In this document: in pieces, positions 14,820-45,462 of the stretch
How the letters are laid out: each line of letters opens with the position of its first letter
How positions within the stretch are numbered: position 1 is the stretch's first letter
Virus record (IMG/VR): IMGVR_UViG_3300046501_000460
Span: 1-64,000 of that record
Origin: a virus
Direction: 5' to 3' (one strand)
DNA length: 64,000 bases
Program-made: the position numbers and the translations under genes
Notes under the pieces: model-generated
Seen by the model: only the letters and a program-made list of their open reading frames with translations
What the model was told of the DNA's origin: nothing
Databases searched by the model: none

Positions 14820-14975
14820 TCAGTTCCCGAAAATGAGGGCCATGAGGGCGTCGTGTACCTGCAGTAGGCCGTAGACGACGTTGGCCAGCAGCCAGGCGAG
14901 GACCATGACAGCGATCGTGGCGCCGGCGATGAGCAGCATCGCGCCGCTGTTCTTGGGAGTGCGCGGCGTGCTCAT
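14820..14975 (-). CDS. 51-residue membrane peptide
   Basis: ATG at 14975 overlaps the stop of the HTH gene (ATGA); stop at 14820, just before the next gene. Residues 1-11 are polar and basic, residues 12-35 form one hydrophobic span (A-M-L-L-I-A-G...), then a short amphipathic tail. Holin-like in size and form, but no lysin is visible nearby. Function not known. Confidence 0.65.
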   Translation of the reverse strand: MSTPRTPKNSGAMLLIAGATIAVMVLAWLLANVVYGLLQVHDALMALIFGN

Positions 14976-15259
14976 GCTTTGCTCCGGATCCGGTAGATGG
15001 TGCGCTCGCTGCAGCCGGCGGCCGCGGCGGCTTCCTTGACGCTCAGGGTCGTGGCGACGCGGCGCCGGTGCTCGGCGCGGGCGGCGTTCAGTTCCTTGGT
15101 GCTGGGCTTGGCCGGGATCGCTTCACGGGCGATGCCCATGCGCTTGAGGACGCGGCAGATGTACGACTCGTGGGTGTCCAGCAGCTGCGCGAGTTCACGG
15201 TTGGTGATCTCGCGGCGGACGATGCGGTCGATGTAGGGTTTGAGGTCGTCGCTTAACAT
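14972..15259 (-). CDS. Helix-turn-helix DNA-binding protein, candidate small terminase or late regulator
   Basis: A 95-residue basic protein with two helix-turn-helix units: residues 18-42 ('T-N-R-E-L-A-Q-L-L-D-T-H-E-S-Y-I') and residues 72-94 ('L-S-V-K-E-A-A-A-A-A-G-C-S-E-R-T-I'). As the first gene of the packaging operon it could be the small terminase subunit that recognises cos or pac, or a regulator acting on the divergent control region beside it. Start set at 15259 rather than 15283 because a -10 lies at 15267-15272. Neither start has a Shine-Dalgarno sequence, so a leaderless start is likely. Confidence 0.75.
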   Translation of the reverse strand: MLSDDLKPYIDRIVRREITNRELAQLLDTHESYICRVLKRMGIAREAIPAKPSTKELNAARAEHRRRVATTLSVKEAAAAAGCSERTIYRIRSKA

Positions 15260-15266
15260 GGCAAAA

Positions 15267-15272
15267 AGTATG
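15267..15272 (-). promoter_or_regulatory. -10 element of the late leftward promoter
   Basis: CATACT on the minus strand, seven bases before the ATG at 15259. The preceding bases (ATGG) resemble the GTGC context of other late promoters, but no good -35 stands 16-18 bases upstream; an activator may be needed. Confidence 0.4.
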
Positions 15273-15317
15273 CCATGAAGCATTCTTTTTGCCTAGCAAC
15301 TTCTGTTCCAGCGTCAA

Positions 15318-15410
15318 TTTCGGCGGAAATTTGCCGAAAATTGCAAAAATTTCTGAAAAATTAGTGAAAAATTGCAAAAAGTTTAAAAAATTGAGGGAAA
15401 TTTTTGGGGA
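15318..15410. repeat. Palindrome and phased A-tracts, possible origin or bent DNA
   Basis: Arms 15318-15324 and 15333-15339 (TTTCGGC with GCCGAAA) form a 22-bp palindrome. From 15337 A-tracts of 4-6 recur about every 8-11 bases (starting at 15337, 15345, 15356, 15367, 15376, 15385). Two near-copies of a 17-19-base unit, GAAAATTGCAAAAA-like, lie 30 bases apart (15336 and 15366). The segment is far more AT-rich than its surroundings. Confidence 0.55.
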
Positions 15411-15597
15411 CCCAGGAGCGCGCGGCCACCTGCCGCCCCGCCGAAAACTACCCCCGTCAGAATCGCTCAGATCGCGCCATACGGCACGACACAATCCGCG
15501 TGCGCCAGCGTACACAGAAATAACAAGCGCAACCTGCGCCATTCTGGCGCGTCCTAGGGCCATTGCATAAAAGCAACAGTGTCGATGCCGACGTCCA

Positions 15598-15712
15598 GGT
15601 CCAACCGCATTTAACACTTTGGTCCAACCAATTACGCTGTCTGGTCTGGCCAAAGTGGTCTGACCAATTGTGCGGTCTGGTCAGACCAGGTTGCCCACCT
15701 GCCAGACCAATA
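15598..15712. repeat. Array of TGGTNNNACCA operator-like dyads
   Basis: Perfect dyads at 15619-15631 (TTGGT-3-ACCAA), 15656-15666 and 15678-15688 (CTGGT-3-ACCAG including flanks), a one-mismatch copy at 15642-15652, a shorter copy at 15598-15606 and a half-site at 15702-15709. Centres of the last four full sites are 22, 14 and 22 bases apart. TGGTNNNACCA is the core bound by the FadR/PdhR branch of GntR regulators. No GntR gene is seen in this window. Iteron-type origin binding is the alternative. Confidence 0.7.
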
Positions 15713-15727
15713 GATTTTAACTATACA
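15699..15727 (+). promoter_or_regulatory. Rightward promoter beside the dyad array
   Basis: CTGCCA (15699-15704), 17-base spacer, TATACA (15722-15727). The -35 overlaps the last half-site of the array, so a bound regulator would sit over or next to polymerase. It would drive the gene at 15858. Confidence 0.5.
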
Positions 15728-15857
15728 GGTAATTAAAAAATACAATGAGCTCTAGGATCACAGTTTTGATATGATTCTTACGTCGTCTGGCAAACGACAC
15801 GGCGCCGCAGTCATGGCGCATCACTCTCAACCGTTACACACACGTATAGGACACACC

Positions 15858-16634
15858 ATGAAAACCGCACAATCCCGCACCGTCGCCATGTCCGACATGT
15901 TCCGCGCTCTGGCCGGCTGCCCGGAAGCGCAATTCGATATGATCGCTTGCACGGTCTACAGCGCTGCCTACTCCATCATGCTGGCGGGCAACAAAACCCA
16001 ATTCAACAAGCTGGAAGCGGACGCGGCCATGTACGGCACTAGCACGGACGCGAGCAAGACGATCCGCGCCCTGTTCGGCATCAAGGCGATGAACGCCGTA
16101 TCGAAGCACTTCCAGCGCACCTACTACGCTGTATCCGAAGCACTGCGCCAGTGCGGCATTCCGGCCGACATGCAAAAGGACTTGCCGCAGGGCAAGGCGA
16201 ACGGTGCCGCGCGTCATGCGATCCTTGATCCGCTGGCGCAAGACTACGCTGACGCTTTCACGGCCGTATTCACGTCCGTGATGATTATGCCGACCAAAAC
16301 CGACGAGGAGCGCACGGCAGCGGCGGCGGATCGTGAGGCGAAGAAAGCCGAGAAAGAAGCCGAGGCGGCGAAGCTGGCCAAAGAAGCCGAACGTGAAGAG
16401 CGCGCGAAAATCGACGCTGAAGTCAAGGCGCGCGTTGACCGTGCCACCGAAGCGACCGAAAAGGCGCTGGAGCTGGCCACCGCGCCCGATACCATGGCGC
16501 GCACCGTCGCCGACATGCTCATGTCCGGCACGCTGTCGGCCGATCTGGAAGCACTCCTGATCGAAGCGGCGCAGGCGCGGGAAACGGCTCTGTTACTGGC
16601 GCGCGCCGCCAGCGCCGAACCCGTCCCAGCCTGA
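15858..16634 (+). CDS. 258-residue helical protein with coiled coil, unassigned
   Basis: First rightward gene after the control region. Start at 15858 (MKTAQSRT) with AGGA upstream; in-frame ATGs at 15771 and 15813 lack one. Residues 1-140 are a mixed helical domain; residues 150-205 are a highly charged coiled coil rich in Lys, Glu and Ala; the C-terminus is again helical. No family recognised. As the first early-type gene behind an operator array it could be a host-takeover or DNA-binding protein; that is inference from place only. Confidence 0.8.
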   Translation: MKTAQSRTVAMSDMFRALAGCPEAQFDMIACTVYSAAYSIMLAGNKTQFNKLEADAAMYGTSTDASKTIRALFGIKAMNAVSKHFQRTYYAVSEALRQCGIPADMQKDLPQGKANGAARHAILDPLAQDYADAFTAVFTSVMIMPTKTDEERTAAAADREAKKAEKEAEAAKLAKEAEREERAKIDAEVKARVDRATEATEKALELATAPDTMARTVADMLMSGTLSADLEALLIEAAQARETALLLARAASAEPVPA

Positions 16635-31975: not shown

Positions 31976-32170
31976 AAGAATCCGACATCGCCCACGAGAA
32001 CAGCCGCTACTGGGTGCCGCGACGTGAAGCGCGCCGCGTACACCGTCTACGTCAGCGGCGCCACCCATTCCACCAGCGACAGCAGCTACCCGCTCACCGC
32101 GGACGGCCTATCGCTGGCCAAAGCCCGGGCCGATTATCTGGCCGGGCGCGACAAGGAGAAGACGAAATGA
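31972..32170 (+). pseudogene. Small gene broken by a one-base frameshift, or frameshift-expressed
   Basis: An ATG at 31972 in ATGA overlap opens a frame with a plausible start (MKESDIAHENSRYWV) that turns into Arg/His-rich nonsense after about codon 18. The +1 frame then becomes clearly coding ('Y-T-V-Y-V-S-G-A-T-H-S-T-S-D-S-S-Y-P' and 'L-A-K-A-R-A-D-Y-L') and stops at 32170, overlapping the next ATG as expected. Together they match one continuous phage protein of about 65 residues that I recognise by appearance. A base is inserted, or shifted, between about 32008 and 32026. Starting at a GTG (32024) is the alternative. Confidence 0.6.
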
Positions 32171-44408: not shown

Positions 44409-44457
44409 GGCGATCCTTGCGAGGAGAAGTGCAGGCCCCGCAAACGAACGCGCAGAC

Positions 44458-44485
44458 CATGCCAGAATGCAATAATTCTGGCATG
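44458..44485. promoter_or_regulatory. 28-bp palindrome over the tail-tip promoter
   Basis: Perfect 11-base arms (44458-44468 and 44475-44485, CATGCCAGAAT with ATTCTGGCATG) around 6 bases. One arm contains the -10 of the leftward promoter, so a bound dimer would block it. It may also fold in the 5' leader. Confidence 0.6.
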
Positions 44486-44613: not shown

Positions 44614-45462
44614 ATGTGGCTCAAGAACGCAACCATCTACGGGATCTCCCCCAAAGCACAATTCCCCATCGAGCAGCTGCAGGCTGCTCGATTCGTTCCT
44701 GTCGACAGCCTGCAGCTGCAGTCGGTCGGCTTCTCGCCAGTCCGCGAGGGCGAACTTGCCTACAGGCAAGGTAAGCACATCCTGCTGCGTTTCACGATCG
44801 AGAAGAAGCACATCCCGGGCTCGGCCGTAGCTGTGCTGGTGGAAGACAAGGCCGCGGCGCTGGAGAAAGCGCAGGGCTTCCCGCCGGGCAAGAAGGCGCG
44901 CAAGGAGCTCAGGGAGCGTGCGATCGACGAACTGCTGCCGCGCGCGCTGTCGACCCGCCGCACGACGCAGGTCTGGATCGACCAGGACCAGCACCGCATC
45001 GTGATCGATTCGGCCTCGAACTCGACCTGCGACGAGATCATCAAGGCGATGATCAAGCTGTTCCCGACGATCGAGTTCCAGGACGTCAGCTGGCCGCGCG
45101 CCAAGGTCGTGACGGCGTGGGTGGCCGACGAGGAGCCGGACGACTTCACGATGGACGATTCGGTCGTGCTGCAGTACCCGGGCGAGAAGGGCAAGCGCGT
45201 GAAGTTTGAACGCGCGACGGCGCAGGGCGCGGACGTGATCAACCACCTGACGGCCGGCGCCCACGTCGACTCGGTCGCCATGACCTTCTCCAGCCGCCTG
45301 TCGTTCGTCATGACGGACAACATGCGCATCCGCCGCATCAAGGCGCTGGACATCGTGCAGGAGGGCCGCGACGCTGAGAACGACGACCGCTTCGACAGCG
45401 ACGTCGCGCTGATGACGCGCGAACTGGGCTGCCTGATCGACGCTCTGGTGCGGGAGGCGTGA
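44614..45462 (+). CDS. rdgC: RdgC-like recombination-associated protein
   Basis: A 282-residue protein, near the 300 of host RdgC. Start 44614 (MWLKNATIYGI), because RdgC proteins begin M-W-F-K/R-N-L-x-x-Y; the frame is open 11 codons further up. Matching features include 'F-V-P-V-D-S-L-Q-L-Q-S-V-G-F', 'Y-R-Q-G-K-H-I-L-L-R-F' and the centre 'R-T-T-Q-V-W-I'. RdgC is a ring that binds duplex DNA and restrains RecA. In a phage it could shield its own DNA or limit RecA-driven recombination at forks. First gene of the replication block; coupled to the next gene (TGATG). Confidence 0.88.
   Translation: MWLKNATIYGISPKAQFPIEQLQAARFVPVDSLQLQSVGFSPVREGELAYRQGKHILLRFTIEKKHIPGSAVAVLVEDKAAALEKAQGFPPGKKARKELRERAIDELLPRALSTRRTTQVWIDQDQHRIVIDSASNSTCDEIIKAMIKLFPTIEFQDVSWPRAKVVTAWVADEEPDDFTMDDSVVLQYPGEKGKRVKFERATAQGADVINHLTAGAHVDSVAMTFSSRLSFVMTDNMRIRRIKALDIVQEGRDAENDDRFDSDVALMTRELGCLIDALVREA

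What the first reader, a model, noticed from the sequence alone, without database searches (positions are those of the whole stretch)
15598..15727. Array of TGGTNNNACCA dyads over a rightward promoter
Three perfect and several imperfect TGGTNNNACCA dyads lie in about 110 bases with centre spacings of 22, 14 and 22, and the last half-site overlaps a promoter -35. This core is the site type of FadR/PdhR/LldR (GntR family) regulators, which sense host acyl-CoA, pyruvate or lactate. No GntR gene is seen in this window. The phage may read host metabolism through a host regulator, or carry its own regulator elsewhere. Replication iterons are the alternative.
Basis: partly seen in the sequence, partly recalled or inferred. 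Interest (0 to 1): 0.7.

Follow-up and report, generated by a model that had tools for sequence, protein, structure and literature searches.

The report
PdhR/LldR-type operators on phage promoter
A bacterial virus and several of its relatives carry, just upstream of an early promoter, a phased row of DNA sites like those by which bacteria sense pyruvate or lactate, so its early genes may respond to the host's carbon state through a host protein that the virus itself does not appear to encode.

Summary
The array is real. Three perfect and one near-perfect TGGTNNNACCA dyads lie at 15620-15688 with spacings 22, 14 and 22. The three perfect ones are the only ones in the 87.6-kb phage contig, and no shuffle of the contig gave such a cluster. 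Relatives carry the dyads at the same place, between leftward late genes and rightward early genes, with centres mostly 58, 81, 104 or 127 bp upstream of a conserved -10 region. Other relatives with the same core genes carry different palindromes there.

The site type is the PdhR/LldR branch of FadR-subfamily (FCD) GntR regulators. The window's central dyad matches the published E. coli LldR box 14/14. In bacterial genomes, paired copies precede FCD-GntR genes, including pdhR-aceE, and the palindrome of relative G002 occurs letter for letter beside lactate-dehydrogenase genes.

No GntR or FCD gene was detected in these phages. The only recognised helix-turn-helix gene also occurs in relatives without the dyads, so a host regulator is the best candidate. 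Host identity, binding and the sign of the effect are untested. Iterons and a phage-borne repressor are less likely.

The parts
15597..15607 (.). Degenerate dyad AGGTCCAACCG (2 mismatches), centre 139 bp upstream of the -10
15620..15630 (.). Dyad TGGTCCAACCA (perfect core; 11/14 to the LldR box with flanks), centre 116 bp upstream of the -10
15642..15652 (.). Dyad TGGTCTGGCCA (1 mismatch), centre 94 bp upstream of the -10
15653..15669 (.). AAGTGGTCTGACCAATT: perfect 14/14 match to the E. coli LldR box AAnTGGTCnGACCAnTT; dyad core 15656-15666, centre 80 bp upstream of the -10
15678..15688 (.). Dyad TGGTCAGACCA (perfect core; 11/14 to the LldR box), centre 58 bp upstream of the -10; same position in G001 (59) and G002 (58)
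15705..15709 (.). Half-site GACCA, about 21 bp beyond the last dyad; identical in G001, GGCCA in G002
15717..15746 (+). Early promoter P1: weak -35 TTAACT (15717-15722), -10 TACAAT (15741-15746); the -10 is conserved in most relatives
15771..15776 (+). Possible second -10 (TATGAT-like) downstream of conserved CACAG
   Evidence: alignment; read by eye
15858..16634 (+). First rightward early gene (258 aa, function unknown; no PHROG match below 0.01); shared by eight of the contigs, replaced in G003
14972..15283 (-). Divergent leftward gene with two helix-turn-helix motifs; also present in relatives without the dyads, so unlikely to be the dyad-binding protein
15290..15410 (.). AT-rich low-complexity stretch present in relatives with or without dyads (possible unwinding or origin element)

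Best explanation
The array is a tandem set of operators for a host-encoded regulator of the PdhR/LldR/GlcC group (FadR-subfamily, FCD-domain GntR proteins that sense pyruvate, lactate or glycolate). One dimer would bind each dyad; neighbouring dyads 22-23 bp apart lie on the same face of the helix, so dimers can bind side by side. The array lies upstream of the early promoter P1, with centres near -70 and -93 and further out, where helix-phased contact with RNA polymerase or cooperative occlusion can set P1 output. The phage would thereby tie the onset or strength of early transcription to the host's carbon state. Shown: site type, pairing, conservation, register to P1, no detectable phage GntR or FCD gene. 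Inferred: host origin of the protein, its ligand, the sign (activation slightly favoured by position), and that P1 fires early.
For: Perfect LldR boxes at this one locus in three phages: window 15653-15669, G001, G002 (box from PMC10272880; PdhR box AATTGGTnnnACCAATT from PMC7660256). Scan of one genome per species for paired TGGTCYRACCA: 63 loci, 25 of them within about -19 to +43 bp of the predicted start of a GntR-like ORF; 10 of 10 tested are GntR+FCD; four gammaproteobacterial ones match PdhR best, and both of the two whose next gene was tested are followed by aceE. In 369 gammaproteobacterial genomes the palindrome AATTGGTCAGACCAATT occurs twice, once between an LldR/PdhR-like gene and a lactate-oxidation-type gene, once upstream of lldD. 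Dyad centres in seven phages fall at 58-59, 80-83, 104-105 or 127-128 bp from the -10 region, apart from a second set in the window. No GntR or FCD gene over cut-off; the only recognised HTH protein among the proteins scanned is shared with dyad-less relatives.
Against: No binding data. The host is unknown: RdgC best hits are Burkholderiales, but at only 38% identity. The window's other dyads score only 9-11 of 14 to the LldR box. The box as such was not enriched in the 369 genomes (4 genomes with a match, about 11 with the reversed control), though its two exact palindromes lie at lactate genes. Two of the window's dyads (94 and 116 bp) and the degenerate 139 copy are off the common register. 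Unrecognised phage DNA-binding proteins are not excluded: one small gene (32024-32170) is found in five of five dyad phages compared and none of four others. The register test ignores shared ancestry, and the -10 positions in G004 and G006 rest on the alignment. Presence of the dyads is scattered on the terminase tree.
Confidence: 0.63

Rival explanations
1. The dyads are operators of a phage-encoded regulator of a family not recognised here (small repressor or activator), and the different palindromes in relatives are other specificities of such a system, as with immunity operators.
For: The array is replaced by other palindromes in G003 and in G005/G007 at the same place, as phage operators often are. 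A small gene at 32024-32170 follows the dyads in the five dyad phages compared.
Against: No DNA-binding domain specific to dyad phages was recognised by Pfam or PHROG among the proteins scanned. The adjacent HTH gene is 81% identical in dyad-less G003 with nearly the same predicted recognition helices. The site matches a bacterial regulator box letter for letter.
Confidence: 0.2
2. Replication iterons: the dyads bind a phage initiator at an origin next to the AT-rich stretch 15290-15410.
For: Repeats beside an AT-rich conserved stretch at the gene-orientation and GC-skew switch point.
Against: Relatives with the same replication genes lack the dyads but keep the AT-rich stretch. The dyads keep register with the promoter and number only two in several relatives. 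The skew switch coincides with the change of gene orientation.
Confidence: 0.06
3. Upstream activator sites for a sigma-54 promoter: sigma-54-like elements (TGGCAY-N5-TTGCW) follow the last dyad by about 8-9 bp in G004, G006, G008 and G009/G010.
For: Elements found at that place by motif scan and direct reading.
Against: The window has no such element in this region. Many similar hits are spacers of late sigma-70 promoters. The dyads are too close to be a usual enhancer (general knowledge).
Confidence: 0.06

Closest known systems
LldR operators (E. coli lldPRD and other targets; AAnTGGTCnGACCAnTT, found in pairs; PMC10272880)
   Same: Box matched 14/14 by window 15653-15669; paired arrangement; A/T-rich flanks
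   Different: On a phage early promoter, not a metabolic operon; up to four dyads; regulator gene not detected in the phage
PdhR operators (AATTGGTnnnACCAATT; PMC7660256) and the paired operator before pdhR-aceE in gammaproteobacteria (L098, L111)
   Same: Same core; paired TGGTCTGACCA dyads 21 bp apart start to start in L098, 22-23 in the phages
   Different: There they sit about 25 bp before the regulator's own start codon; here 58 bp or more upstream of a promoter -10
Host regulator sites on phage promoters (Spo0A boxes on phi29 early promoters, LexA-controlled phage genes; from general knowledge, no paper read)
   Same: A host sensor protein would gate phage transcription
   Different: The sensor would report carbon metabolism (pyruvate, lactate or glycolate), and the sites form a helically phased array shared across a phage group

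Membership tests
PdhR/LldR-type (FadR-subfamily, FCD GntR) operator | Palindromic TKGT-N3-ACMA core (PMC4494728) | tested here: met
PdhR/LldR-type (FadR-subfamily, FCD GntR) operator | 17-bp box AAnTGGTCnGACCAnTT | tested here: met
   14/14 at 15653 and in G001, G002; 11-13 at most other dyads of the relatives, 9-11 at the window's other dyads
PdhR/LldR-type (FadR-subfamily, FCD GntR) operator | The same sites occur at genes of FCD-GntR regulators or their target operons | tested here: met
PdhR/LldR-type (FadR-subfamily, FCD GntR) operator | Cognate regulator present in the same cell | not testable with these tools
   Not detected in the phage contigs; host unknown
PdhR/LldR-type (FadR-subfamily, FCD GntR) operator | Specific binding, altered by pyruvate, lactate or glycolate | not testable with these tools
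   needs EMSA or footprinting
Phage-encoded operator/repressor system | A DNA-binding gene that co-varies with the operator type | tested here: inconclusive
   No recognised one; one small unknown gene co-occurs
Replication iterons | Repeats conserved with the replication genes across relatives | tested here: not met
   Relatives with the same replication genes lack them
Sigma-54 enhancer sites | -24/-12 promoter downstream in the same region | tested here: not met
   Absent from this region of the window, present near the dyads in some relatives

The most novel reading that the evidence does not exclude
A group of apparently virulent phages gates an early promoter with exchangeable cassettes of host-regulator operators on a common helical register. 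In one class the cassette reads pyruvate or lactate through host PdhR/LldR-type proteins, while related phages carry cassettes for other host regulators, so that the phage's early programme is matched to the metabolism of its particular host.
Probability: 0.3. Interest if true: 0.8.

Novelty: new variant of a known kind. Interest (0 to 1): 0.6.

Why it matters
Whether phages without a recognisable repressor sense host physiology when starting early transcription is largely open. Here is a concrete, conserved and testable case in which the sensor would be a host carbon-metabolism regulator; binding and the effect of gene deletions can be tested in E. coli K-12 with well-known proteins.

Tried and rejected
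Known-phage DNA match for the region: none. Rfam: none. tRNA: none. Sigma-54 promoters: a home-made matrix scan (weights from memory) gave many hits, but most conserved ones proved to be spacers of late sigma-70-type promoters in which GCAA-N5-RTGCC lies between -35 and -10, so sigma-54 is kept only as a side note. Adjacent HTH protein as the binder: rejected, since it is nearly the same in dyad-less G003. Iterons: disfavoured (see rivals). Viral contigs L049, L050, L051 and L055 carry the dyad pair but showed no protein match to this group in the part's list that was printed. Paper searches for phage plus sigma-54, PdhR or LldR promoters found no direct precedent in the library.

Full report
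What is there. The window is bases 1-64000 of an 87,574-bp viral contig whose first and last 127 bases are identical. Late genes including the terminase run leftward and early genes run rightward from an intergenic region at about 15284-15857. In it lie TGGTCCAACCA (15620), TGGTCTGGCCA (15642), TGGTCTGACCA (15656) and TGGTCAGACCA (15678), plus a degenerate copy at 15597 and a half-site at 15705. The three perfect copies are the only ones in the contig. None of 200 shuffled contigs gave a cluster of four sites with at most one mismatch.

Relatives. Scans with the divergent HTH gene, the first early gene, the dyad pair and the terminase brought in related contigs G001-G012. Dyads of the form TGGTCYRACCA, mostly in pairs 22-23 bp apart, lie at the same place in G001, G002, G004, G006, G008 and G010; G009 carries the same sites as G010. 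G003, G005, G007, G011 and G012 lack them. In G003 the place holds CTTATACATGACTGACATGTATAAG, and in G005 and G007 a shared TGCCTATTATTTMGGCA palindrome. On a terminase tree the dyads need about four gains or losses, two at least on well-supported branches, so the cassette is exchangeable or the genes have different histories through recombination.

Register. Measured from dyad centre to the first base of the conserved -10 (TACAAT or its aligned counterpart), the sites fall at 58-59 (window, G001, G002), 80-83 (window, G001, G002, G004, G010, degenerate copies in G006 and G008), 104-105 (G004, G006, G008, G010) and 127-128 (G006, G008). The window has two further dyads at 94 and 116 and a degenerate one at 139, a second set off this register. 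A constant register with variable occupancy points to action on this promoter. The random-register test ignores shared ancestry, and the -10 positions of G004 and G006 rest on the alignment.

Site type. FadR-subfamily sites have conserved TKGT/ACMA boxes, usually with 3 bases between GT and AC (PMC4494728). The E. coli LldR box is AAnTGGTCnGACCAnTT, found twice in each bound region (PMC10272880), and the PdhR box is AATTGGTnnnACCAATT (PMC7660256). Window 15653-15669 matches the LldR box 14/14, as do sites in G001 and G002; contigs without dyads have no site above 11. Independently, a scan of one genome per bacterial and archaeal species for the pair gave 63 loci. In 25 of them the predicted start of a GntR-like ORF lies between about -19 and +43 bp of the pair (ORF starts and GntR calls there are rough), and all 10 proteins tested carry GntR and FCD domains. 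The four gammaproteobacterial ones match PdhR best, and the two whose downstream gene was tested are followed by aceE. The Actinobacterial pairs have a TG rather than AAT flank, so they belong to other members of the family. In 369 gammaproteobacterial genomes the LldR box as such was no commoner than its reversed control (4 genomes against about 11), but its only two exact AATTGGTCAGACCAATT copies, identical to a G002 site, lie next to lactate genes: one between an LldR/PdhR-like gene and a lactate-oxidation-type gene, one upstream of lldD.

Who binds. No GntR domain was found in the contig or seven relatives, and no FCD domain over cut-off in 13 contigs. Among the proteins scanned, the only recognised HTH protein is 14972-15283 (the Pfam lists were cut at 25 families), which dyad-less G003 shares at 81% identity with nearly the same predicted recognition helices. 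A host protein is therefore the simplest source. RdgC at 44614 is closest to Burkholderiales proteins on plasmid records, a weak hint to the host.

How it may act. Centres near -70 and -93 and beyond (taking the first base of the -10 as -12) lie upstream of the promoter, where helix-phased activation is usual (general knowledge); cooperative occlusion is also possible. The sign is not shown. Binding, ligand, early timing and host are untested, so the overall confidence is 0.63.

Noticed in passing
window 5302, 5982, 9417, 11824 and relatives: Conserved GCAA-N5-RTGCC lies in the spacer between -35 and -10 of several late leftward sigma-70-type promoters; it mimics a sigma-54 site read backwards.
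   Followed up: partly
G004, G006, G008, G009/G010 early region; window 44479 and contig 73607: Sigma-54-like TGGCAY-N5-TTGCW elements, about 8-9 bp downstream of the last dyad in some relatives and conserved at two other places.
   Followed up: partly
window 15708-15723 and relatives: A dyad GATAG-N7-CTATC next to the P1 -35 recurs, often imperfectly, in most relatives regardless of operator class.
   Followed up: no
G003, G005, G007 early regions: Different palindromes occupy the place of the dyads; their cognate regulators are unknown.
   Followed up: no
window 15253-15283: The HTH gene starts right after a -10-like CATACT without a clear ribosome site, so its mRNA may be nearly leaderless.
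   Followed up: no
G004 5728 and 24262: Two extra TGGTCCAACCA copies outside the early control region.
   Followed up: no
window 32024-32170: Small gene of unknown function found in five of five dyad phages compared and in none of four others.
   Followed up: partly
window 44453-44480: Strong palindrome ATGCCAGAATGCAATAATTCTGGCAT in a second divergent promoter region next to an RdgC gene.
   Followed up: no
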